A stretch of 64,000 nucleotides of DNA from Fragilaria crotonensis. Lineage: Eukaryota; Bacillariophyta; Fragilariophyceae; Fragilariales; Fragilariaceae. Shown here piece by piece: positions 32,059 to 50,755 of the stretch. Position 1 is the first letter of the stretch; every line of letters starts with the position of its first letter. The notes beneath the pieces were generated by a model. That model saw only the letters and a program-made list of their open reading frames with translations, ran no database searches and was not told the origin of the DNA. Location of the stretch: positions 62,001 through 126,000 of the forward strand of contig JAKSYS010000028.1 of NCBI GenBank assembly GCA_022925895.1. Direction: 5' to 3'. The position numbers and the translations under genes are program-made.

Positions 32059-32239
32059 GCGGGACATTCCCGCTTCCGACAGGATCTCCGGCTCTGCGGC
32101 AGCTGCGGCGGATGTGTAATCATGTAATGTAGAAATGTAGAAATGCTAAGGAGGTTGGCGAAAAGCGGCGCGTTTACTATGCTGCCGCACGCGCCTACCT
32201 CGGTGCTCTCCCGTTGTTACGGGGGTTGCACTTCATTGG
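32059..32239. repeat. DIRS split repeat A, terminal copy (A1)
   Basis: 181 bp, nearly identical to A2. The only differences seen are one C in a CCC/CC run and one G in a G5/G4 run. It starts with the inverted repeat GCGGGA-CAT-TCCCGC, which sits at the element's outer edge and again at the internal joint. Confidence 0.92.
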
Positions 32240-32252
32240 GCGGGCGGGCGGG
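32240..32252. other. G-tract linker between repeats A1 and B1
   Basis: Together with the last bases of A1 it forms GGGCGGGCGGGCGGG (32237-32251), a perfect four-run G-quadruplex motif. It is the only sequence between repeats A1 and B1. Confidence 0.8.
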
Positions 32253-32488
32253 TTAATTGAAGCTAGGGACTAGTTCCCCCTGTCTCGCTCGTGCTCGCGA
32301 CACTGATCCGGGCCGCGCTACACTTCGTAGACTAGATGGTTGATTCGAGAATCAACCGAAGAATGGCAGTTGCTTCGTTGCGTTTCAAGGCGTCGGTGAC
32401 GCTGCCGAATTCTGACAGCCGTAGGCTCCGTGGAGTGCGTGCTGTTCGGCCCGTCTGGCTGCCGCCCGACTGCACTCCCGTCGAACAG
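32253..32488. repeat. DIRS split repeat B, internal copy (B1)
   Basis: 236 bp, differing from B2 by a single T insertion (GCCGCCCG against GCCGCTCCG). It contains the near-palindrome GGTTGATTC-GA-GAATCAACC at 32338-32357. Confidence 0.92.
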
Positions 32489-32666
32489 CGGGACATTCCC
32501 GCTTCCGACAGGATCTCCGGCTCTGCGGCAGCTGCGGCGGATGTGTAATCATGTAATGTAGAAATGTAGAAATGCTAAGGAGGTTGGCGAAAAGCGGCGC
32601 GTTTACTATGCTGCCGCACGCGCCTACCTCGGTGCTCTCCGTTGTTACGGGGTTGCACTTCATTGG
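32488..32666. repeat. DIRS split repeat A, internal copy (A2)
   Basis: 179 bp. It abuts B1 with no spacer, forming the sequence expected of a circle junction. The recombinase ORF stop codon (32660) lies just inside it. Confidence 0.92.
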
Positions 32667-33848
32667 CCATTGGGGCCAGGAGGGCTGGAAAGGGTGGGCC
32701 ACCGGGCGGAGCGCCGGGGAAAGGGTGGGAGATTGAGGCGGAAGTCGCCGCCGCGAAGCATGGCGGTGGCAACGCCAGCCATGATAGGTTGCGCCTGCAC
32801 GTGTAAGTAGCGGTAGACTTCGTCCGATCGCCAGCGGCCGATGAGGCGGAGGCGATCGGACCCAATGCCGGCACATAAGAGGGCCATGGCGCCGCCCGCA
32901 CGAGTGCAGCGGGCGGAAAAATCGGCAGCAACCAGATCGGGCAGGAAAGAGACGGCGTGCCGGATGAGGGTAGTGATGTGCGCGGCGAGGACAAAGCGCC
33001 ATACGTCCCCTGGAGTGCGATAAGCATTGAGGGGGGTTGTGGGCGTAGCGCCTGCGGCGCGAAGTTGGGTGATGCGGCGGATCAAGGCGTGAACAGGACA
33101 ATTGGTGGGGTGGCCACTTCGCCCATGACCGATGGTTTCCCCACGCACACCGTTCTTCTGAGTGGTGAACGTGAGGGTAACGAAAGTAGCGGCGTGGAGG
33201 TCGGCGAGCGGACAGGTGAGGGGAGCCAGCCGGCGGTGACCGATCGAGACACCAATGTCCTGGAGGCGGAAGAGATCATCAGCCTCCGTGCGTGGAATAC
33301 CGCTGTATTCACCAGGGCGCAGGAGAAAATAGTACGCGAGGAGAAGGCAGTCCCCGGAGGCGGAAGCACGGGACCCCGGCGGGTGCGCCATGGCGTGCAT
33401 GTGGGCGTGTCGCAACACCGAAAATGGCATGGGCTTGACACGTGTCGGGGGGGTGTCTATGCGTTTCCACGCGGCAAACAGGGACTGAAGGCGGAAGTCG
33501 ACGGCACCAAACGAGTTCAGGCGAGGGTCGTCGGCCCCACCCGGGTGAACGCCTGCGCGACCTGGCGGACGGCGTCCTCCACTGTGCGAGATCGAACAGG
33601 CCGGTCGCTGGGTGCGATGCGACCGGCGCGGTATTGTTGGGCAAAGAGCATGAGAACGGGGACTGGGTCGCCGTGTATGTCATCAAGGCGGGGTGGATCC
33701 CATGCGTGGTACAGAAACGGTGCCAGGCACGGACCGCGGAGGAGGCCGAGGTGAGCCGATGCGCAGACTGGCCGGAACGGAGCGTTGCCGTAACAACGCC
33801 CCAATCACTGCAGAGTGCATCGCGGGCTCGAGGTGGAGCAACTTCCAC
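32660..33848 (-). CDS. Tyrosine recombinase ORF of the DIRS element, frameshifted
   Basis: It replaces the integrase of LTR elements and is thought to insert the circular cDNA. The core-binding part is RSGQSAHRLTSASSAVRAWH and VEDAVRQVAQAFTRVG. The catalytic part is open from 33430: YYFLLRPGEYSG (first Arg), TFTTQKNGV (candidate Lys), ARCTRAGGAMALLCAG (second Arg; the usual His three residues earlier is Arg) and LIGRWRSDEVYRYLH (Trp and nucleophilic Tyr). Two frame changes lie between 33790 and 33520. The first about 165 nt overlap the RT/RNase H ORF, as is usual in DIRS elements. The stop codon lies inside repeat A2. Confidence 0.85.
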
Positions 33849-35831
33849 GAGGTGGCCTGAGGATAAACAGTATTAAAATGAGTGAGAAAGGCGGAGTCCG
33901 ATAAATCCCAACGCCGACTTGCATCGTCGGCCATCACATTGGCGGTGCCTGCAATGTAATCGTGTTGTGGTACGTAGCGGTGATATCGCTGGTGCAAGGC
34001 ATTGAGGCGGAGCAGGTAGGCCCTGGCAGTGCTGGCGGTGGCAGATCCTTTGGTCGCCCAGGCCAAGGAGGCGCGATTGTCACCCGCAAGCCAGATGGGG
34101 CGCTCAGCCACGGAGGTGGCTTGCGTGAGGACGTGCTTATGCGCCATGGTGCCAGCGAGCTCAAGGTCCGAAATTGATACTGTGCCGTGGCGATTGTCAC
34201 TGGTGACAAGAGTCTGTTGGAGGGGGCTCGGAAAGGTCGCGCGCCAGACAAAGGGCCCCGAGGTTGAGAGAAACCAAACCCCCCCCATGCCTCGTTGGCA
34301 AGCATCGCAAGCGCCATAAGCAAGCGGGGCACCTACTGGTATGAGCTCTCGAAACCGTGTAGGACGCACCCGGAGTGAGTCGGCGATAGCTCGGAAATCC
34401 GCGAGGCTGTCAAAGATGCGACGGCTGAGACGCACGCGATGTCGATCGCCGTGTCGAAGTGCGTCCTGCAACGTGGAGAACAGGCCGCGAGCACCGGGTA
34501 AGGCGGCGGCCATAGAACGCAACTCCCCCAAGAGTTGATGCCAAGCCGGCAGGGGGACGCGCTTCCGTGTCGGGGGAAAGGCGTCGAGGAGAGTGTAGAG
34601 CCGCGCCAGACGGTGCGGAGGCAGGTTGAGCGTGCCCGCCACCGTGTCCAGGTCCCACCCGAGAATTGTCTTCTGAGTTGCCCAAGATGCGTCGCCTTGA
34701 CGGAGCTTCTTAATCGAAACGGGCTCCTTCCGACTACCACGATCCGAAGGTGCCAGTGGGCGGAGGACGTGGTCGATCGCGTGCAAGGCGGCGCGCATCA
34801 CGCGACGCCGATGGCGCTTCGTCTGCGCCGCCAGGATAAAGTCGTCAACGTACACGTCCCCGTAGGTAATCGGAGGGGTGCGTTGGACGGTCGAGCCCTC
34901 CCGGGCCAGGCGCGGCGCGTCTCCTCCTATCGTGGGCGGCACGTCGGCTGGTGGAGTCGCCGCTAGGGACTCCAAGTGGTGTGGGGGCAATTGGGCCCCC
35001 CGGCGCAGAGCCCCATTCAGCAGATCACAGGCGGTCTCGGTGACCGACGTGAAGTACGGCGGGCTCTCGACCCAGCCCATGGGCAAGGTGAGGGGAAGTG
35101 CCACCAGAGGAGCACCGCCGTCCGTCGGGAGAATCACGCCCAAACGAGGGATGTCATGAGGTCGCAAGGAGATACGGTAGAAACCGTCGGCAATGTCGAT
35201 CTTCGCCAGGAAGACCGGCCCGTAAGCTGGGTTGGCGTTAACCAATTTGGTGAGGAAACGGCGGAGCGCCCTCCCAAACTGCATGGCCTCGGGGTGCCAG
35301 CCGGGCGGTGTCGTCGTTCACCCCGGGTAGGTGTAATCGACGATGAGGCGCGGACGGCGGTTGCGTTGGGGCACAACGCCCAATGGGGATAAGCGCAGAT
35401 TGGGTAGTGTCAGCGCCACCTCCAGCGGGAGTACCACCCAGAAGCCTTGGTCGCAAAACTCCACCATCTCGGTGCATACGAACTCTACTTCGCCCTTCGC
35501 CGACTGATGGGAGCCCCGTGCTGCTGCGCGCTGCAGTTGTTCCTCCGACCAAGGGCCCGTGTGCAAGGGAACGCCCGCGCCTCGCTTTCGAAGGTGCTCC
35601 AGCAGGCGAGCAGCCTTATGAGGCAAAGTGCCTACAGTGGGCGTGATGTCTGCCTGACCTCGTTCAGTTGCCACAAACCATTCCCAATTGACACTGTTAT
35701 CTAATTTAGCCGCTGCCTGTTCCGCATACTTACGCAAAGTGATCTCTGCACGAGACAAACGGGTGTCATCCCCATTTACTCGTGCGCGTGTCGTTGCCCG
35801 CCTGGATCCGTCGTCGAGTTCGCCGGGCCAT
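33683..35831 (-). CDS. Reverse transcriptase / RNase H ORF of the DIRS element, frameshifted
   Basis: The likely start is the ATG at 35831 (MARRTRRRIQ), 57 nt downstream of the gag stop. The RT domain begins near EFCDQGFWVVLPL and SPLGVVPQRNRRPRLIVDYT, continues with AKIDIADGFYRI and GWVESPPYFT, and has the catalytic YVDD box (ITYGDVYVDDFILAA). RNase H follows: AYGACDACQRGMGGVW (Asp), SISDLELAGTM (Glu), WLAGDNRASLAW (Asp) and MADDASRRWD (Asp), so all four acidic positions are present. Frame changes occur near 35780, near 35325 (CGGGG) and near 35290 (CACCCC), all consistent with single lost bases. From 35284 to 33683 the frame is open for 533 codons. Its end overlaps the recombinase ORF. Confidence 0.88.
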
Positions 35832-35889
35832 GGTGGTGCTTGTAAGAGCCAGGAGCAGCAGCTGTCGCTTCCGATCCCTGGCCCCAGCG

Positions 35890-38037
35890 TCAGGTGCTAG
35901 CAGCCGCCGCTGCAGTGGGTGCGACCAGGTGCGCCCTCACGTGCGCCAAGAGTCGTGTGCGTTCCCCTGGATTGGCAAATGGGCGATGCGTGGAGGCCCT
36001 GCCGCAGTTGGTGTAGCAACCGCCCCGCCCCCACCAGGATACACAAAATGCATTGCCGGCGTCGTTGGCTGGCGGTGGATGCGCACGTAGGAGGTCGCGC
36101 ATCTGAGGGCGCAACTGCAAAGTGTCAAACTCAGGATCCCGTGCTGGGTTGGCGACGTAAGTTCCCTGGGGCGCCGTCGCGCCACTGGCACCACTGCTAG
36201 CGCGGCCCCCGCCTGTCGAGGCCGTCAGCCCTGACGTGGTAGAGGCGGCAGTCGAGGCCCGAGTTGTGCGGGTGCCAACTGTGTTCGCCTCGCCCCGGAA
36301 TGCAGTGCTCGCGTCGGCCGTCACCGCAGCCGGGAGTGGCAGCCATGAGGACGACATGTGGAAGCAGCCGCGCTGGAGATCGCGGAGTAACTCGTGAAAT
36401 GAAGGAGGCTCCGGTGCATCCATATCTGCCCCGACCCCCCCACTCACCTGCAGTGCCTGCAAGTACTCAAACACGTTAATCTGGACGTGCCGGAGGACGT
36501 GTGACGCGTACACGTCCCACCATGGGGTGCCCGCTAGACCTTGGTGGTGCCCGAGGTAATGCGGGAGCCGCTCGTGGAACTTGTTCCCAAGCAACCACAT
36601 GCTCTTCACGAAAGGGTTCGAGTCGCCCGGCCCTTGAAATAAGGTATGGGCAAGGATGGCGAAGCGCCGTAGGGTCAAGCTGACTTGATTAAGGTCACGG
36701 GGCAGCTTGACTTTCTCCTTGTCGCGAATATCGCGTATATCGGCCAAGGATGCGCTGGCCGTTCCTTGGTCCAATTGATTTGCCACGTTCGCTTCGTCGA
36801 GCGCCCGGTAGTGCTCCGCCTGGCTGGTGTAGACGACCAAAAATGGTTGGCAGCCCGCTCCGAGGTCGTCGGGACCGTTGCCGACAAAATTCAGACTGGC
36901 GATCATCTGCTTGAGGCTCGTGGTCACCGCGGGACAGTATAGATCCGGTGTGAGTCCCCGATCCACGCATACTTTAGTCAGCTCCTGTTGGATGATAGAT
37001 TGTTGTTCCCCTTTGGAACCACGGGCTAGGCGATTCCATAGGGGTGCAAGTTCGTCAACTGAGTTCACTTGGCAATAGCGAAGCAACACTGGATACGTCT
37101 CGCGGTACGCATCCATGATGCCTTTAGGCTCTCGAGTAGTGCGACCACCAACTTCCCCCATGGTGGCTGTCAATTGTTGGACAGCCGTTACCATCGGGTC
37201 TATGCCGCCTCGTACTGGTGCTCCCCCCCCGAGTCGATGGCTCGGCAACTCGCCGGTCACTTTGGCCGCCACGTAGTCGCTCACCGCTGCCGGGAGGAGC
37301 AGCAATGGGAACGAGAGCGCGACCGCTGGTACAGCGGATAGATCCCCCGCCCCCCCTCGAGCGGTGCAAGCGACTCGAAGCCAGGAGAGGACATCCGCGC
37401 AGGCTTCGTCCACGCCATCCGCTGCAAACTGCCCTGTCAGTTCCTGATAGGCTGTGGCCGGACTCACACCGTCTCGGTGGATCAACGTGGCCGCATATTT
37501 TGCAGGTATGACCTGGGTCAACCGAGGCCTGATTACCTCCGTATTTGGCGTGCCCGCCGCGTACGGTCCTAGGGCCGTGCCGGGAGGGGCTGCCGCCAGA
37601 CGATCTGGCATTGAGGCCATGGTGGGTACTCGGACCCCGGCCAGGATGAGTGAGAAGTGGGAATTATCAACTTCGACCACTGGCATCTGGGTGGCGCGAA
37701 CGTCACCTAGTAACCCCATGCTGAGGTCCACCAGGCCGCCCCCATCTCCCGGCAGTTCAAAATATCGCATCATGCGATGAAGTACCCGAACCTCGACTCC
37801 GGTGTTGGGCTTCTTGTTGAGACAGAGGAACGTCATAGGACGACGCTCACTCAACACGAAAGTCTGTTCCTTCAGGTTTGCCGGTGTAGGGCGCTCTCCG
37901 CCCCCCACAGCGTCGGTGAATCGGTAACTCGACACGAGGCGTGCAGGCTCCGGCTCACCGTCTTGATAACCGACTGTCGAGTAGAACTCCCGGTAGCTAC
38001 CGGGTTGGGCGACGTCGTTAGGAAACTGCTGTGCCAT
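35890..38037 (-). CDS. Gag-like ORF1 of the DIRS element
   Basis: About 715 aa from the ATG at 38037; the frame extends only to a TTG at 38049. It is intact. The N-terminal half has no recognised domain. The centre is helical with WLRVACTARGG and MDAYRETYPVLLRYC segments. The C-terminus is Thr/Ser/Ala/Gly-rich, then has a Cys/His cluster FCVSWWGRGGCYTNCGRASTH (Cys-x8-Cys-x3-Cys-x5-His), a zinc-knuckle-like motif typical of the first ORF of DIRS elements. It probably forms the RNA-binding capsid-like particle. Unlike pol, no frameshift interrupts it. Confidence 0.8.
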   Translation of the reverse strand: MAQQFPNDVAQPGSYREFYSTVGYQDGEPEPARLVSSYRFTDAVGGGERPTPANLKEQTFVLSERRPMTFLCLNKKPNTGVEVRVLHRMMRYFELPGDGGGLVDLSMGLLGDVRATQMPVVEVDNSHFSLILAGVRVPTMASMPDRLAAAPPGTALGPYAAGTPNTEVIRPRLTQVIPAKYAATLIHRDGVSPATAYQELTGQFAADGVDEACADVLSWLRVACTARGGAGDLSAVPAVALSFPLLLLPAAVSDYVAAKVTGELPSHRLGGGAPVRGGIDPMVTAVQQLTATMGEVGGRTTREPKGIMDAYRETYPVLLRYCQVNSVDELAPLWNRLARGSKGEQQSIIQQELTKVCVDRGLTPDLYCPAVTTSLKQMIASLNFVGNGPDDLGAGCQPFLVVYTSQAEHYRALDEANVANQLDQGTASASLADIRDIRDKEKVKLPRDLNQVSLTLRRFAILAHTLFQGPGDSNPFVKSMWLLGNKFHERLPHYLGHHQGLAGTPWWDVYASHVLRHVQINVFEYLQALQVSGGVGADMDAPEPPSFHELLRDLQRGCFHMSSSWLPLPAAVTADASTAFRGEANTVGTRTTRASTAASTTSGLTASTGGGRASSGASGATAPQGTYVANPARDPEFDTLQLRPQMRDLLRAHPPPANDAGNAFCVSWWGRGGCYTNCGRASTHRPFANPGERTRLLAHVRAHLVAPTAAAAAST

Positions 38038-38078
38038 GATGTGGGCCAAGACTCCACGGTTGCGCCAGCTGGTTCGGC

Positions 38079-38315
38079 TTAATTGAAGCTAGGGACTAGT
38101 TCCCCCTGTCTCGCTCGTGCTCGCGACACTGATCCGGGCCGCGCTACACTTCGTAGACTAGATGGTTGATTCGAGAATCAACCGAAGAATGGCAGTTGCT
38201 TCGTTGCGTTTCAAGGCGTCGGTGACGCTGCCGAATTCTGACAGCCGTAGGCTCCGTGGAGTGCGTGCTGTTCGGCCCGTCTGGCTGCCGCTCCGACTGC
38301 ACTCCCGTCGAACAG
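38079..38315. repeat. DIRS split repeat B, terminal copy (B2)
   Basis: 237 bp right-hand end of the element, lying 41 bp upstream of the gag-like start codon. Beyond 38315 (CGAACAG) the sequence departs from B1. Confidence 0.92.
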
Positions 38316-38921
38316 TTATTGTGCAATTTAACAATTTAACTTGTGTATTATAAAATCAAAAGATTCGATTTTTTAAGAAACGCGATCGGCTCGATTAGGG
38401 GACGCAAACAAACACGCATTCCACTTTCGAATATACGAATATGAAAAAGCACGCGGCATGCTCTACCGTGTGTACACCCTTGTTTCGTACTACAGTACCG
38501 GCATACATGTAATTTCATACTGAGTACAGGAGATCTATGGAGTATGGAGTCAAGCCAACACAGGAGACGAACAAATATCACACAAACGATTGTCATCATT
38601 CTCATTCCCTACTTTGCCAGCATGGAGATTGAAGACAGGGATACAGGTTGCAATGATGACATGAAGTTCTTCTTGTTCTTTGTAGTTGCTCAATCATAAA
38701 CAACAAGGTTGTGGTGGTGATCCATTATCTTTGTTGTATCCGTTGAGAACAACAGTGATTCCATCACCTGCCTGCAGGCTGTTTAGCAAATCCCTTTCCT
38801 TATCTTTGTCGTATCCGTTGTGAACAACAGTGATTCCATCGCCTGCCTGCAGGCTGTTTAGTAGCAAATCCTTTTCCTCCAGATCACAGACATCCATCTT
38901 TCAGCTCCAAGAGGCATTTAT
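38316..38921. other. Intergenic right flank of the DIRS element
   Basis: About 600 bp of AT-richer sequence with one GTAC cluster (38490-38530) and a tandem duplication (listed separately). No gene is supported. Confidence 0.4.
38726..38875. repeat. Two-copy 75-bp tandem repeat
   Basis: Units start at 38726 and 38801 (TATCTTTGT-T/C-GTATCCGTTG...). They differ at a few positions only. Because 75 is a multiple of three, the minus strand reads a repeated SLQAGDGITVV-NGY peptide, but no start, context or homology supports a gene. Confidence 0.8.
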
Positions 38922-44853: not shown

Positions 44854-45545
44854 ATGGCGTGAGAGAGATTGAGGATATGAACGGATGTTTTGATGCTGTG
44901 GCGAGTTGATGTGTCTTTTTTGTTTTGCTGGGGCGAAGAATCAAGGGAGAGCGCAAAGCACTTGCAGAATCTCCACATACGTTTTTGAAGATACCACATG
45001 TCTAGAGAAGCAGGTACTAATACCTGGTGTAAGTACTGTATGGGGTATGGGGTACCAGGTATGGGGTATGGGATATGGGATATGGGCACGCTGAGTACTA
45101 CAGTACTGTGTACTGTCGCAAGGACTCGTGGTGCTACGTCGTAGTACAGTATGACATATCTGCAAGCACATACGAACTATGCATACGTAGTAGCGACTGT
45201 CGTATGATTTTACGATGACTCTTCTTTATACAGTACCAGTACTCCTAGTACGTTGTAGGTCGTAGTAGACGTTCAACGGAAGAAAATTGCGCGCTTATAT
45301 ATCGTATCATGCTGGCAGACTTCCAAATTGACCCAAAAGCGAACCCAACCGAAAACCCCATCAAAATCGATCATGCTATCTAGATTAGATCATACCTGGT
45401 GCATTTTATCACCACGATTGCAACTCATTCATTTTTATATTCCTGGTCTGGGGCTTTTCGTGAAAGGACGCATACCAATCCATCATATTTATCATTTATT
45501 CGAAGGCATAGGCACATCGTACTTCATCAAACGTGCAGTAACGCC
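44854..45545. promoter_or_regulatory. Divergent promoter region between phosphatase and cupin protein
   Basis: About 690 bp between divergent starts, with GTAC palindromes at 45015-45260, a G-rich minisatellite, and a TATATATCGTATC stretch near 45296. A TATA-like role for the last is speculative. Confidence 0.45.
45038..45088 (+). repeat. G-rich GTATGGG / GATATGGG minisatellite
   Basis: Six runs of three or four G separated by TAT or ATAT, interrupted once by GGTACCAGG. It could form a G-quadruplex. It lies about 460 bp upstream of the cupin gene start and 185 bp upstream of the phosphatase start. Confidence 0.75.
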
Positions 45546-46925
45546 ATGAAAAGCATACTCCACAACCTTCAACTTCTGTCGACGAAGACTATCGGCATCC
45601 TCATACTGGTCGGCGTTGGATGCTACACAGCGGTTTCATTCGTAGCTCATAGCTACATCGTGTCATTGGAGGCAGCCGACCTGAATGTGTTTCAATTTGT
45701 GGACAATGCGCGAGATCGTCACATACAAGCACCCGCCAACCCACACAAGCTGAGGCAGTCTCAACTCAACCTGCACCGCAAACGACCACAAGCAGGGCCT
45801 AAGCGCCTGACAGCGGCATCCTTCCAAGAACAAAACGCACGCGCAGCGAAGCTTAAACAGCACTACGAGCTTGTATATTCTCCCAAAAAGACCGATCGAA
45901 TTCGCGATTACGTCTACAAGCACCTGCGACGACCTTTTGAATACAAAACGCAACTCGATCTACCGTACGATGTATACAATTGTCCTCGTAAGGGACCACC
46001 TCCCAACTATCCTTTTGGTTGGAATGTCATGGATGTTATTGGACATTGGAATCCGATGAATACGTCAGAGCCCGAACGGATCCATCAATCGCTCTGTGTA
46101 TTTGATTACGATGAGGACTTGAGTGTTGCTGCACTATATCGAAAAGCCGAGGTACCATTCCTACTGCGCAACACACCTGTTTTGCTTCAAACTGCTGAAC
46201 GATGGAACCGAAATCCTGGCTACCTTTCGTCCTTGCTTCAAGACTACGTGGAAAAAACTGAGCATTCTCACAACAATCATTTCATGTACTTTAATGTGAA
46301 AAGTCCGAGACTGCGCATTCCCGACGGATGGAAACCACCGATGGAGTTGACGGAATTGTCCTTTGACGCCTGGCAAGAACTCTCTGGTACTGTCACGACA
46401 GACGAACCCAACCAAGAACGCTACTACTTTCGTGTCAACGGCGTCAAGGGCGGTCCACATGAATATCTTTTTCAAGAATTGCCAATTTTCCTACCTACTC
46501 ACAATAACTTCTTCATGGTCGATCCCAAGGAACAGAGAGGAATCAATTGTCGCTTTGGCATGAAGGGTATCATAGCCGAAACGCATTTTGATGAAAGTCG
46601 GAATTTCATCGTATTGCTGGGAGGCCAACGACGATATATTTTGGCACATCCCAGAGAATGTCAAAACCTACAGCTTTACCCCATTGACCACCCAAGTGGA
46701 CGGCACTCGGCTGTCGACTGGACGGATCCAGATTTGAAGAAATTTCCAGACTTTAAAAAGGCTCAAGTTCACGAAGTGGTCTTGCAGGCGGGAGATGCCT
46801 TGTACTTGCCCACCATGTGGTTTCATTTCGTTGTGTCGCTCAATGTCAACTATCAATGCAATGCTCGATCGGGAAAGACCTTTGAGAACGTTGATTTTAT
46901 TCGTAAATGTGGTTTTTTGGGATGA
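45546..46925 (+). CDS. Cupin-8/JmjC-like 2-oxoglutarate oxygenase, membrane-anchored (copy 1)
   Basis: About 459 aa. The ATG at 45546 starts just before a signal anchor (STKTIGILILVGVGCYTAVSFVAH); the longer upstream frame lacks merit. A basic stem follows, then a conserved region beginning YDVYNCPRKGPPPNYPFGWN. The C-terminal oxygenase domain contains GMKGIIAETHFDESRNFIV, in which His about 347 and Asp about 349 form the HxD iron motif; GQRRYILAHP; SGRHSAVDW; and LQAGDALYLPTMWFHFVVSL, in which His about 427 is the distal ligand. Such proteins hydroxylate proteins or bind metal in the secretory pathway. The substrate is unknown. It lies tail-to-tail with a paralogue at 47283-48806. No break or intron. 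Confidence 0.85.
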   Translation: MKSILHNLQLLSTKTIGILILVGVGCYTAVSFVAHSYIVSLEAADLNVFQFVDNARDRHIQAPANPHKLRQSQLNLHRKRPQAGPKRLTAASFQEQNARAAKLKQHYELVYSPKKTDRIRDYVYKHLRRPFEYKTQLDLPYDVYNCPRKGPPPNYPFGWNVMDVIGHWNPMNTSEPERIHQSLCVFDYDEDLSVAALYRKAEVPFLLRNTPVLLQTAERWNRNPGYLSSLLQDYVEKTEHSHNNHFMYFNVKSPRLRIPDGWKPPMELTELSFDAWQELSGTVTTDEPNQERYYFRVNGVKGGPHEYLFQELPIFLPTHNNFFMVDPKEQRGINCRFGMKGIIAETHFDESRNFIVLLGGQRRYILAHPRECQNLQLYPIDHPSGRHSAVDWTDPDLKKFPDFKKAQVHEVVLQAGDALYLPTMWFHFVVSLNVNYQCNARSGKTFENVDFIRKCGFLG

Positions 46926-47282: not shown

Positions 47283-48806
47283 CTAAAATCCACATTCGTG
47301 AATAGGTGACATGTATTCCGGTCCAATGCCGCTCCTCGTGTTGCATTGAAAATTGAGATCCAGTGAAATGATGTAGTGAAACCAATTTGTGGGCAGGTAC
47401 ATAACGTCTCCAGCTTGGAGGATGACTTCGTTCGCCTTGGCGTGAGCGAATTGTGGATAACTCTCTAGATCTGGATTGCTCCAATCCACAGCCGAGTGAC
47501 GACCCGACGGATGTTCCTTGGGAAGAAGCGCCAGTAACTCGCATTGATCAGGGTGGCTCAGGATATACCGACGCTCGCCGCCAAGGACCACGATAGCATT
47601 GCGCGATCCATCAAAATGATTTTCGGCGATAACACCCTTCATTCCGAAGCGACAATGAATACCTTTTTGCTCTTCAGGTTGTACCAAGTACAACTGCTTC
47701 TTTTTCGGTTGGAAAAATGTTAATTCATCGAAGAGATATTCTGATGATCCAGTGTCACATTCTCCCATGTCACCACACCCAATCAATCGATAATACCAAT
47801 GCGGCATATTCGGGCCCAATTTATCGTCCGTGACATTGGCATGTTCTAACCAGTCCATGTATTGCATTCGCATCATTTTGGTAGGTTCAGACCAATTCGC
47901 TGGCATTTCAACATTGTATACTCCCCAAAATTTATTCTTTTTCTTTTGAGGAGGCGGTTCACGTTTGTGCTGTTTCTTGGGTTGACTAGGCTTCATCCAA
48001 TAAAGAAAGTGATTGGAGCCTGAATATTCCGCTCGGTGCGGCACAGTATTCATGAGTTGTTCCATGTATCCAGGAGCATTCCAACGCTCGACCGAAGCCG
48101 CCACTTGAGGGTCGCCGCGAACAACAAAGGGCAGTTCCTGGTCACGGTAATGCATTGCCTTGTCGTATTCGGTTGCATAGTCAAAGACGCACCAACCTTG
48201 ATGAATTTCTGATCGTGGGGTAGTGTCATCAGGAGGCCAGTGGTTCAAGAGATCCAAAATGTTCCAGGCGTAAGGATATCCTTCTGGTGGTTCGTAAGGA
48301 CAATCATAGATGTCGTAGTACGACTCTTCAGGGATCCTAATGGGACTATAAGTGTTCTTGTGAAGGGATTTCGTGAACGACAGGCTGCGTTCGTCGTCTT
48401 TTGGCAGCATGGCATCGTACAACTGTCGCAGCAATTGATATTGTACACTCTTGTCACCGATGCGTTTCATACTACCAGGAATATGGTAGAAGGGTTTGGG
48501 CACAAAGTATTGCATTCTTGGAAGAGATTTGCCTCCACCAGCCAACTTCCAGCTTGCGTATATCCCTGCCATGAGGAGGAGCACCATCAAGAGAACAAAT
48601 TGAAATTGAGATTCCCAATCTGGGCCGTAGTACGTCGAGAATGCCGTATTCTTAATCTTCTTGGAACGACGAGGGCGACGGGAGTCGTTGGCTGGTTGAG
48701 GTCCATGATTGTGGTCGTGGCCATTGCAGCAATCCGAGGTTTGGGATGCATCTGGCGACAATGCGCCGTTTGCAGGGGCGACACGAGCACGTAGTCCTGG
48801 CATCAT
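47283..48806 (-). CDS. Cupin-8/JmjC-like 2-oxoglutarate oxygenase, membrane-anchored (copy 2)
   Basis: 507 aa, paralogous to the convergent neighbour. The N-terminus is cytosolic with CCNGHDHNHG, a possible metal-binding patch, and a basic SRRPRRSKK, then a signal anchor (FQFVLLMVLLLMAGIYAS). The shared body runs from YDIYDCPYEPPEGYPYAWN through HQGWCVFDYATEYDKA to the oxygenase domain: GMKGVIAENHFDGSRNAIV (His/Asp near 397-399), GERRYILSHP, SGRHSAVDWSNPDL, LQAGDVMYLPTNWFHYIISL (distal His). It differs from copy 1 by a Lys/Gln/Pro-rich insert (KPSQPKKQHKREPPPQKKK) and a Cys-containing loop (GCGDMGECDTG). The two probably arose by inverted local duplication, since they meet tail to tail with about 355 nt between stops. 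Confidence 0.85.
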   Translation of the reverse strand: MMPGLRARVAPANGALSPDASQTSDCCNGHDHNHGPQPANDSRRPRRSKKIKNTAFSTYYGPDWESQFQFVLLMVLLLMAGIYASWKLAGGGKSLPRMQYFVPKPFYHIPGSMKRIGDKSVQYQLLRQLYDAMLPKDDERSLSFTKSLHKNTYSPIRIPEESYYDIYDCPYEPPEGYPYAWNILDLLNHWPPDDTTPRSEIHQGWCVFDYATEYDKAMHYRDQELPFVVRGDPQVAASVERWNAPGYMEQLMNTVPHRAEYSGSNHFLYWMKPSQPKKQHKREPPPQKKKNKFWGVYNVEMPANWSEPTKMMRMQYMDWLEHANVTDDKLGPNMPHWYYRLIGCGDMGECDTGSSEYLFDELTFFQPKKKQLYLVQPEEQKGIHCRFGMKGVIAENHFDGSRNAIVVLGGERRYILSHPDQCELLALLPKEHPSGRHSAVDWSNPDLESYPQFAHAKANEVILQAGDVMYLPTNWFHYIISLDLNFQCNTRSGIGPEYMSPIHECGF

Positions 48807-49244
48807 GTATCCGTAGACTACCTAGACTCTGGTTTGGAAGAATACAAGAGGGCACCACGAAGAGGAGGAAAGTGAAGAGAGTACTTGCTGATGTGAGGTG
48901 GTCTTGGAATCAGTTGGACAATGGTCGGTTGTTGGAGTACATGGCCGGAATCCGAACGCATCGAACCCCCTCTGTAGGTTCGCGTCCTTTATGCATACGA
49001 GTCCTACTTCAAAACGAAAAACATGTATTTTGAAGGTGCGTTGAATCCTACTGGGATCGATGTACATCAAGGAAAGAATGCGGGAAACTACTGGTACTGT
49101 CGGAGTAGACTTCGTTACACAGTACACAGTGTACTATACTGGTACCATGTACTAGTACTGGTAATTACCAGAATCGTGGAACCGGAGAACAAGTATTTGT
49201 ACAAGTACATACCGCCACGCTCGATCGATGACGAAGGGGATAGG
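48807..49244. other. Intergenic, left flank of the Copia element
   Basis: About 440 bp upstream of cupin copy 2. GTAC palindromes occur at 49090-49215 (GTACACAGTGTACTATACTG, GTACTAGTACTGG). It is followed by the target duplication GATAGG. Confidence 0.45.
49239..49244. repeat. Target-site duplication, left copy
   Basis: GATAGG directly before the LTR, matched by GATAGG at 51910-51915. Six bases match; Copia duplications are usually five. Confidence 0.75.
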
Positions 49245-49627: not shown

Positions 49628-49669
49628 CGTTTATAAACGGTCAGTTTATATTTTGAAGTCTCAAGCAAC

Positions 49670-50755
49670 ATGGTCGACGAACAGTCTGAGTCCGGGTATG
49701 GTACTACTGTTCGTGCGTTTGCGTTTGATGGCGACGAAGCCAAGTACCGTTCCTGGGAAGGGAAGACGCTTGCGCTTGCCGGGTCGAGGGGATTTCTACT
49801 TGCACTAACTAAAGCAGCTACCGGGAGGGTACTTACTGTGGAAGAGTATGAGTACGGCGAGGTTGAGGTGCCTGGTATGGATGTCACTGGTGGCGCGGCT
49901 ACCGCTGCAACGACACGTCCTACGACAGCTGCGGAGAACCGCAAGTACCTCGCGAAGGCTACAGCTTGGACATATTTGGTTGCAAGTTGCACCGGTACAG
50001 CCTACGCTCTAATTGAGAGGTGCGAAGGTGATCCGTTTAAGGCTTGGGCCATACTTCAGGAGAAGTACTGTGCCACTGACGCGGAAGAAAACTACCCTGA
50101 GCTGGATCAAGCATTTAGCGAGTGCAAGCTCGATGGGACAAGCAAGGATCCGGAACTCTGGTTCAATGACTTGGACCACTTGAACATGAGGCTCGCAAGA
50201 ATTAACTTGAAGTACGAGAAGGACGATCTGCAAATGAAGAGTAGAATGATGAAGGCTATGTCGACGGACTATGACAGCGTCATCGTCAAGTTCCGCGGTG
50301 ACTTAAGCGATACGCCTCTCGCGAAGTTGCGCAAGGAAGTGGTACTCCAATTCAAGACCCTTGTCAAGGATGGTCGTGGAAGGGGCTCGGAATCGGTACT
50401 CAGTTCCAGCAACACATTTAAGGGAACATGCAGGAATTGCGGCAAGATTGGCCATAAGGCACATGAGTGCAGGTCGGCCAAGGTCGAATCTACGGAGGGT
50501 CCAACGAAGGATGCCAGTACTGCCGACGTCGATAAGTCAAATGTGACATGCTATAATTGTCAAGGGAAGGGGCATTATGCGAACGAGTGTGCGGCGCAAA
50601 GAACTTCAAGTCTGACCCTACAGCTGATATGGCAATGTTTGTCGGAGCGTCATGCGTGGATACTATGCCCGTCTACAAGGGCTATGACTATTGTGCAGAT
50701 GTGGAGACAGCTTCTTCGACAACATGTCCGATTCAGTGGCTTTTGGCGAGGTTGA
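49670..50755 (+). CDS. Copia Gag with two zinc knuckles
   Basis: Starts 42 nt after the 5' LTR. It has a capsid-like helical region (KAWAILQEKYCATDAEENY, ELDQAFSECKLDGTSKDPEL, LWFNDLDHLNMRLARI), then two CCHC knuckles, CRNCGKIGHKAHEC and CYNCQGKGHYANEC, which bind the element's RNA. After the second knuckle, near 50605, the true frame seems to shift to one reading NFKSDPTADMAMFVGASC and then (50691-50927) an acidic tail. The last part of the listed frame (to 50755) is therefore probably spurious. Confidence 0.88.
   Translation: MVDEQSESGYGTTVRAFAFDGDEAKYRSWEGKTLALAGSRGFLLALTKAATGRVLTVEEYEYGEVEVPGMDVTGGAATAATTRPTTAAENRKYLAKATAWTYLVASCTGTAYALIERCEGDPFKAWAILQEKYCATDAEENYPELDQAFSECKLDGTSKDPELWFNDLDHLNMRLARINLKYEKDDLQMKSRMMKAMSTDYDSVIVKFRGDLSDTPLAKLRKEVVLQFKTLVKDGRGRGSESVLSSSNTFKGTCRNCGKIGHKAHECRSAKVESTEGPTKDASTADVDKSNVTCYNCQGKGHYANECAAQRTSSLTLQLIWQCLSERHAWILCPSTRAMTIVQMWRQLLRQHVRFSGFWRG

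What the first reader, a model, noticed from the sequence alone, without database searches (positions are those of the whole stretch)
32059..38315. Complete-looking DIRS-order retrotransposon with PAT-like split repeats
The arrangement A1-B1-A2-genes-B2 with near-identical copies, a B1/A2 joint that equals the predicted circle junction, YVDD reverse transcriptase with RNase H, and a tyrosine recombinase with Arg, Trp and Tyr in place together define a DIRS-order element of PAT-like structure. Copies of both repeats differ by only 1-2 homopolymer-type changes, so it is recent. PAT-like elements are known from other eukaryotes (established), but I cannot say whether this diatom family has been described. 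It would be a good model for recombinase-based retrotransposition in algae.
Basis: partly seen in the sequence, partly recalled or inferred. Interest (0 to 1): 0.85.

Follow-up and report, generated by a model that had tools for sequence, protein, structure and literature searches.

The report
Ngaro-like retrotransposon of a diatom
This is a real, recently inserted kind of jumping gene in a diatom that encodes a recombinase instead of a retroviral-type integrase, and most of its relatives carry a conserved stop codon plus RNA hairpin that looks built to let ribosomes read through from the coat gene into the copying enzyme.

Summary
Window 32059-38315 is a 6257-bp element on the minus strand with canonical split direct repeats A1-gag-RT-RH-YR-B1-A2-B2. 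A second full copy has the same two ends in different flanks; two partial copies share the 3' end. The host is a diatom (silicon transporters).

One correction: "PAT-like" describes only the repeats. PAT elements belong to a group defined by a methyltransferase; none lies between RNase H and YR, and PF05869 has no match in the assembly. By published features the element is Ngaro-like. No RT tree could be made.

The main new result lies inside. In 28 distinct relatives with a readable gag end, the gag stop is UGA (28), followed by C (26), with a GCCAGG stem arm starting 7 nt downstream (27). The hairpin covaries, and pol continues in the same frame in 27. This is the layout of UGA-CGG stop-codon readthrough, my best explanation for Gag-Pol synthesis. 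Three capped searches of an open-access library listed no report of it for this order.

Readthrough is inferred, not shown. In three of four copies of the window's own family pol is out of the gag frame as assembled, and all four copies have broken frames, which I read as mostly assembly error.

The parts
38075..38315 (-). A1: left terminal repeat in the sense direction (241 bp), contains palindrome GGTTGATTCTCGAATCAACC
   Evidence: terminus identical in copy C733
35890..38037 (-). ORF1, gag-like, from ATG to UGA (715 aa); C-terminal cysteine/histidine cluster (CCCH-like, recalled label); no Pfam match
35890..35892 (-). gag stop codon UGA followed by CGC; proposed readthrough codon
   Evidence: TGA in 28 of 28 scored relatives
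35848..35882 (-). stem-loop 3' of the stop codon (arms GCCAGG 35877-35882 and CCTGGC 35848-35853)
35318..35896 (-). ORF2 first open piece: N-terminal part of reverse transcriptase, ends at an in-frame stop in this assembly
33683..35317 (-). ORF2 second open piece: reverse transcriptase (YVDD) and RNase H
   Evidence: (RVT_1 E 0.033, below cut-off)
33857..33859 (-). invariant CAG codon of the Tyr-Pro-Gln motif near the start of the YR frame; possible 3' splice site
   Evidence: CAG in 25 of 25 rows (24 distinct relatives) against 44 of 83 Gln codons in RT/RH
33309..33872 (-). ORF3, N-terminal piece of tyrosine recombinase, overlapping ORF2 in the -1 frame
32660..33679 (-). ORF3, C-terminal catalytic piece of tyrosine recombinase (Arg ... 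Arg-x-x-Arg ... Gly-Arg-Trp ... Tyr)
32488..32666 (-). B1 repeat
32249..32488 (-). A2 repeat; B1/A2 joint at 32488 equals the predicted circle junction (TCCCG-CTGTTCGA-CGGGA)
32240..32248 (-). C/G-rich spacer between A2 and B2
32059..32239 (-). B2: right terminal repeat in the sense direction
   Evidence: terminus identical in 3 other copies

Best explanation
It is a recently inserted tyrosine-recombinase retrotransposon of Ngaro-like anatomy in a diatom genome. Genomic RNA is translated into Gag; at the gag UGA codon, set in the context UGA-CGG (CGC in this family) and followed by a stem-loop whose conserved arm begins 7 nt downstream, a fraction of ribosomes reads through and makes Gag-Pol with reverse transcriptase and RNase H. 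The YR is encoded in an overlapping -1 frame. Reverse transcription uses the internal B1-A2 block to restore the ends and gives a circle joined at B2/A1; the YR then inserts that circle at a site with about 1 bp of identity and makes no target duplication. Shown: repeats, ends, copies, hairpin conservation and covariation, open same frame across the stop in 27 of 28 relatives. Inferred: readthrough itself, the circle, and YR-mediated insertion (from the published model for this order, recalled).
For: Split repeats and exact joint; a second full copy with the same ends and different flanks, two partial copies with the same 3' end; the same layout in diverged relatives L015/L016, L018, L020, L026. 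No methyltransferase. Among 28 distinct relatives with a readable gag end: UGA in 28, C next in 26, CGG in 21, GCCAGG starting 7 nt after the stop in 27, pol in the same frame in 27. Of the fetched junctions, 15 were chosen by YR match alone and all 15 show the UGA. A 17-base motif taken from the junction has 11 matches in 62 Mb, none for the reversed control, all on contigs with YR matches. Hairpin: mean z -3.57, 26 of 29 below -2; covariation 0.235 against 0.114 +/- 0.020 (0 of 500 shuffles), at most 0.149 when slid; RNAalifold finds the stem unprompted.
Against: No copy of the window family has all frames open as assembled; in 3 of its 4 copies (window, C733, C204) the gag frame after the stop does not run into pol. 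One relative that covers the junction, L012, has no such UGA as assembled: its gag frame runs straight into RT and the motif is absent. L044 has UGA but other stem arms and no APPW motif. In one search two of five measures (pairs with double change 7 against 6.7; pair types 21 against 20.0) do not exceed shuffles, and one stem pair is mismatched in 10 of 17. After GC correction the junction window ranks 1, 15, 9 and 3 rather than 1, 2, 9 and 1. No empty site was found for two insertions. No RT tree, transcript or translation data. The YR reaches Pfam only through relatives 25-32% identical.
Confidence: 0.76

Rival explanations
1. It is a PAT-lineage element that lost its methyltransferase, so the first reader's label is right by descent although a defining part is missing.
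For: Such a loss is proposed for a Caenorhabditis briggsae lineage, and YRE features are described as homoplasious (PMC4157794, passages). The repeats alone do not separate PAT, Ngaro and VIPER.
Against: The relatives read across the RNase H/YR boundary have no room for the domain and no PF05869 match exists in the assembly, so no methyltransferase-bearing sister was found in this genome.
Confidence: 0.2
2. Pol is not made by readthrough but by frameshifting or by termination and re-initiation at the UGA; the hairpin stimulates that, or serves packaging or reverse transcription.
For: In three copies of the window family pol is in the -1 frame as assembled. A similar gag-UGA-pol layout in the LTR element Tca2 did not direct readthrough in yeast (PMC2194720, passages).
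Against: Pol is in the same frame in 27 of 28 relatives. The codon after the stop is CGG in 21 of 28 and the stem arm starts 7 nt after the stop in 27 of 28. I searched for no frameshift signal at this junction by program.
Confidence: 0.17
3. The YR is made from a spliced RNA whose acceptor is the invariant CAG at the Tyr-Pro-Gln motif (supplementary to the main explanation).
For: CAG in 25 of 25 rows, 24 distinct relatives, although CAA is nearly as common elsewhere in RT/RH (44 CAG, 39 CAA in 5 elements); the overlapping-frame residue varies (Gly, Asp, Glu, Val) while its first base stays G; no ATG shared by the families opens the YR frame.
Against: No conserved GTRAG-type donor in the first 420 bases of 8 elements (the rest was not searched); in the -1 frame the base starts a Gly or Asp codon in most rows, so overlapping coding could explain part of it; YR frames overlapping other ORFs are known (PMC3783388, passages).
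Confidence: 0.35
4. The element is a dead relic: the broken frames are real mutations.
For: Frames are interrupted in all four copies.
Against: Among the 4 copies 31 of 34 variable segments involve indels, 24 of the 31 touching a run of at least three identical bases, while mismatches to the window copy are 1 in 6267, 2 in 6169 and 2 in 5207 aligned positions; repeats of one insertion are near-identical.
Confidence: 0.2

Closest known systems
Ngaro retrotransposons of Cafeteria burkhardae (stramenopile; PMC8547959, passages)
   Same: About 6 kb, GC-rich, A1-[ORFs]-B1A2B2, Gag-like ORF1, RT/RH, YR; the word methyltransferase does not occur in the main text
   Different: Those YRs are assigned to PF00589 and keep His-x-x-Arg; here the window clade has Arg-x-x-Arg and no direct Pfam match. 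The word readthrough has 0 occurrences in that paper (search listing)
PAT elements (Panagrellus and relatives; PMC4157794, passages)
   Same: Split direct repeats; zinc finger in Gag (Pat1)
   Different: PAT elements are grouped by a methyltransferase domain; none here
VIPER/TATE of kinetoplastids (PMC6681497, passages)
   Same: Split direct repeats A1 ... B1 A2 B2; no methyltransferase (per PMC4157794)
   Different: Stated to be known only from kinetoplastids (abstract of PMC3783388); RT relationship not tested here
DIRS/Ngaro-like elements named in heterokont genomes (Ectocarpus siliculosus in PMC3145265; 14 'DIRS' copies tabulated for Phaeodactylum in PMC5859163)
   Same: Same order in related hosts
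   Different: Named in surveys in the passages read; no structure or recoding signal described in those passages
UGA-CGG type stop-codon readthrough (leaky contexts listed in PMC11166343, passages; Firth et al. 2011 recalled, not held)
   Same: UGA followed by CGG and a 3' stem-loop a few nt downstream
   Different: Described there in RNA viruses; here a cellular YR retrotransposon at the gag/pol boundary, and no readthrough has been measured

Membership tests
DIRS order (tyrosine-recombinase retrotransposons) | RT and RNase H together with a tyrosine recombinase instead of a DDE integrase | tested here: met
   RT YVDD, RNase H residues and YR Arg/Trp/Tyr conserved; RVT_1 matched by 4 of 4 proteins, best E 0.0015 (below the cut-off for the window protein); the YR itself has no Pfam match, 4 relatives match PF00589 at E 0.002-0.11, below cut-off
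Ngaro-like | Split direct repeats A-pol-B-A-B downstream of a forward YR | tested here: met
Ngaro-like | No methyltransferase domain | tested here: met
   No room between RNase H and YR; PF05869 absent from the assembly
Ngaro-like | RT/RH phylogeny inside the Ngaro clade | not testable with these tools
   No reference DIRS, PAT, Ngaro or VIPER sequences held; one IMG/VR scan by RT gave no relative
PAT-like | Split direct repeats | tested here: met
PAT-like | Methyltransferase domain (DIRS group) | tested here: not met
DIRS1-like | Inverted terminal repeats with internal complementary region | tested here: not met
   The ends are paired by direct repeats; the inverted pairs listed are 20-27 nt and not terminal
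UGA-CGG stop-codon readthrough (type II) | UGA followed by CGG (or CUA) | tested here: met
   CGG in 21 and CTA in 1 of 28 relatives; other codons in 6, including CGC in the window family
UGA-CGG stop-codon readthrough (type II) | Stem-loop starting about 8 nt downstream (spacing recalled) | tested here: met
UGA-CGG stop-codon readthrough (type II) | In-frame coding sequence after the stop | tested here: met
   27 of 28 relatives; for the window family only copy C179 of four is in frame as assembled
UGA-CGG stop-codon readthrough (type II) | Measured readthrough product | not testable with these tools
   needs reporter or mass spectrometry

The most novel reading that the evidence does not exclude
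A whole radiation of diatom YR retrotransposons (28 distinct relatives scored in one genome) makes Gag-Pol by programmed UGA-CGG stop-codon readthrough driven by a covarying stem-loop, a recoding route not listed for this order in the searches made, and makes its recombinase from an overlapping frame that may be reached by splicing at an invariant CAG.
Probability: 0.65. Interest if true: 0.65.

Novelty: new variant of a known kind. Interest (0 to 1): 0.55.

Why it matters
How YR retrotransposons set the ratio of Gag to Pol is, as far as I know, little studied; a recoding signal with strong comparative support gives a directly testable mechanism, in a host group where some species are transformable (recalled). 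It also corrects the label of the element (no methyltransferase, so Ngaro-like by features). A family with near-identical copies at different loci is a practical subject for studying recombinase-based retrotransposition in algae.

Tried and rejected
Empty allele: the flanks of the window insertion and of the C733 insertion have no near-identical second place in the assembly; the C108 hit is only a paralogue of the neighbouring gene. Solo A-B repeats of this family: no full-length one, only the four copies and diverged pieces. Relatives in IMG/VR by RT: none in one scan. PDB by sequence: none for RT or YR profiles. -1 frameshift signal for the YR: no slippery heptamer seen by eye. 5' splice donor: none conserved in the first 420 bases of 8 elements. 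Structure prediction of YR and Gag: not obtained. RT tree against reference clades: not possible, no references held. Rfam: nothing in the window at gathering scores; tRNAs: none.

Rows and bias. The covariation count uses 3' arms chosen from each sequence's own fold and is biased; I rely (17 of the 28 relatives, those whose 3' arm is the first CCTGGC, chosen after seeing the folds); one search covers 9 more; L019 and L044 are in neither alignment. Of 38 loci searched for a gag end, 3 do not reach the junction (L014, L021, L023), and 3 that reach it were not scored because the gag frame is broken or runs on: L012 (no UGA, motif absent), L015 (same insertion as L016; motif with an altered base) and L020 (motif present). 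L033 and L034 were scored through the pattern and not through the gag end. For the counts over 28 I left out L009 and L011 (same family as L010), L049 (same as L039) and L025 (related to L024); one search has 29 rows because L025 was kept. By the 80% rule the 32 junctions fall into 29 clusters, L025 being the 29th. The window family is represented in these counts by C179 (L010), the only one of its four copies with pol in the same frame; with another copy the in-frame count would be 26 of 28. One search counted 22 of 22 CAG with a stricter motif; the recount admits three more rows, and one of 26 (L084) does not cover the place.
Full report
The thing itself. The window is bases 62001-126000 of contig C219 of a 62.1 Mb assembly in 881 contigs. 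The host is a diatom: the silicon-transporter family PF03842 gives 19 matches, 18 over the curated cut-off, with three units in one open frame on C97. The element lies on the minus strand. In its own direction it reads A1 (38315-38075), gag, RT, RNase H, YR, B1 (32666-32488), A2 (32488-32249), a 9-bp spacer, B2 (32239-32059). The internal B1/A2 joint is ...GGAATGTCCCG-C-TGTTCGACGGG..., what joining the outer ends would give if they share one C.

Copies. A DNA search of the host assembly gives a second full copy (C733), one lacking its 5' end (C179) and one cut by a contig end (C204), 99-100% identical, followed by relatives at about 64-80% nucleotide identity. The second full copy has both termini identical and different flanks; the two others share the 3' terminus. 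Differences among the four copies are mostly indels: 31 of 34 variable segments contain gaps and 24 of these 31 touch a run of at least three identical bases; mismatches to the window copy are 1 in 6267, 2 in 6169 and 2 in 5207 aligned positions. I read this as very recent spread seen through an assembly with residual indel errors; the sequencing method is unknown to me, and which indels are real cannot be told here.

Relatives. L015/L016 (one insertion present on two contigs with identical flanks), L018, L020 and L026 show the same A1 ... B1-A2-B2 layout with near-identical repeats. L021 has B-A-B-A-B, as repeated recombination at the joint could give. In the window family, L013, L015/L016 and L020 the joint reads TCCCG-CTGTNCGA-CGGGA, two short inverted arms round 8 nt, like a small recombinase site (inference); L018, L021 and L026 fit this less well. 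The base before the left terminus is A in 8 of 9 distinct insertions, and no target duplication was seen by eye in the six with both ends (window, C733, L015, L018, L020, L026). A YR search gives 106 matched stretches in the genome, often several per element, as a lower bound.

Classification. There is no methyltransferase: the YR frame already overlaps the end of ORF2, and PF05869, the profile reported to detect the DIRS methyltransferase (PMC3783388, passages), has no match in the assembly, while among 14 control genomes it rings in E. coli. PAT elements belong to the methyltransferase-bearing DIRS group; Ngaro and VIPER lack the domain and have split repeats (PMC4157794, passages). So the features say Ngaro-like. 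The same paper warns that such features are homoplasious, and I could not build the RT tree. The YR keeps the first Arg, the second Arg, Trp and Tyr, but the His of His-x-x-Arg is Arg in the 8 of 9 window-clade sequences readable there, while all 6 distant ones have His. That the tetrad residues are catalytic is recalled.

The gag/pol junction. In the window family gag ends with UGA-CGC; in L018 and L026 the stop lies in the same frame as RT. I fetched 20 more junction pieces: 5 by a pattern from the first junctions and 15 by distance from a YR match alone; all 15 of the latter show a UGA after the gag cysteine cluster. Over 28 distinct relatives (80% rule; dropped rows in Tried and rejected) the stop is UGA in 28, followed by C in 26 and by CGG in 21; the fourth codon after it is CAG in 27 and the third ends in GC in 27 although its amino acid varies (Gly 19, Arg 6, Ser 1, Cys 1). 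The 17-base pattern occurs 11 times in 62 Mb, the reversed pattern never; all 11 lie on contigs that also have YR matches. Pol follows in the same frame, up to the APPW motif, in 27 of 28. Against this, L012 reads from gag into RT without a UGA as assembled.

A stem-loop follows the stop. In 28 of 29 rows GCCAGG begins 7 nt after it with all six bases paired in the minimum-energy fold; in the 29th (L044) other arms form a hairpin near the same place. Energies are lower than dinucleotide shuffles by 3.57 standard deviations on average, 26 of 29 beyond 2; the weakest is -0.98. Within four whole elements the junction window ranks 1 of 1219, 2 of 1226, 9 of 1279 and 1 of 1231 by energy, and 1, 15, 9 and 3 after GC correction. 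On the 17 relatives whose loops align, 79.9% of cells pair (71.1% shuffled), 31 cells have changes on both sides (15.7 shuffled) and the covariation score is 0.235 (0.114 +/- 0.020); none of 500 shuffles reaches these three, and slid versions reach 0.149 at most. Two other measures of the same call, pairs with double changes (7 against 6.7) and pair types (21 against 20.0), do not exceed the shuffles. Related sequences can exceed such shuffles without structure, as the tool notes; the slid control and the unprompted RNAalifold results are the safeguards. UGA CUA and UGA CGG are listed among leaky contexts in PMC11166343 (passages); the class of UGA-CGG with a 3' stem-loop is recalled from Firth et al. 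2011, which was not held. A caution is Tca2, where a gag-UGA-pol junction did not direct readthrough in yeast (PMC2194720, passages).

In the window copy, C733 and C204 the 3' arm region is shorter than in C179, so as assembled pol is there in another frame. The hairpin still forms. Three of four copies agree, so a true shared deletion is possible.

The recombinase frame. The YR frame overlaps ORF2 in the -1 frame in the elements read, by 355 nt of open frame in L015 and L016 (187 in the window copy, 406 in L020, 796 in L013), without a shared ATG; in L018 RT, RNase H and part of the YR read as one frame. The Gln codon of the Tyr-Pro-Gln motif where the conserved YR begins is CAG in 25 of 25 rows (24 distinct relatives), while RT/RH use CAG 44 and CAA 39 times. 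Splicing at this AG is a possible reason; no donor is conserved in the leader. I hold it at 0.35.

Prior art. Searches of the held open-access library: DIRS+Ngaro+diatom, YR retrotransposon structure, readthrough with retrotransposon, DIRS or Ngaro terms, diatom DIRS and diatom Ngaro since 2015. DIRS/Ngaro-like elements are named for Ectocarpus (PMC3145265, passages) and 14 DIRS copies for Phaeodactylum (PMC5859163, table passage). The readthrough searches listed only 10 of 26, 10 of 23 and 10 of 136 papers; no paper on DIRS, Ngaro or VIPER elements in those lists held the word readthrough. Subscription papers, notably Poulter and Butler 2015 and Goodwin and Poulter 2001 and 2004, were not read, so absence from print is not established.

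Odds. On recount I lowered the main confidence from 0.78 to 0.76 and the novel reading from 0.70 to 0.65, because L012 and the GC-corrected ranks had been left out, and raised the frameshift/re-initiation rival from 0.15 to 0.17.

Noticed in passing
window 38075-38315 and 32249-32488 (A repeats): A palindrome GGTTGATTCTCGAATCAACC in the A repeat whose two arms appear to change together between relatives (L012, L015, L018, L020, L023, by eye), next to a conserved GTCTACGRGTGTAGC; a second structured element or a protein-binding site.
   Followed up: partly
L086:4394-5539 (around C548:117602-118705): A 382-aa open YR frame with His-Ser-Leu-Arg sits behind an RNase H-like tail between host-like genes; similar open frames about 30% identical to the C733 YR occur on C9, C186, C155 and C622. 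A second YR lineage or retained YR genes.
   Followed up: partly
L021 (C326:40825-41869): Tandem B-A-B-A-B array at the 3' end of one element, as repeated recombination at the B/A joint would give.
   Followed up: no
L010:7971-8900 (C179): The 5' end of one copy gives way to a tandem repeat of about 60-bp period.
   Followed up: no
window 49637-50755: ORF with two CCHC zinc knuckles, like gag of an LTR retrotransposon (recalled).
   Followed up: no
window 45384-46925 and 47283-48821: Two Cupin_8/JmjC-like proteins of about 510 aa on opposite strands side by side.
   Followed up: no
window 38725-38878: A direct tandem duplication of about 75 bp just outside the element.
   Followed up: no
G000:C97:29749-33762: Three silicon-transporter units in one 1456-aa open frame.
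   Followed up: no
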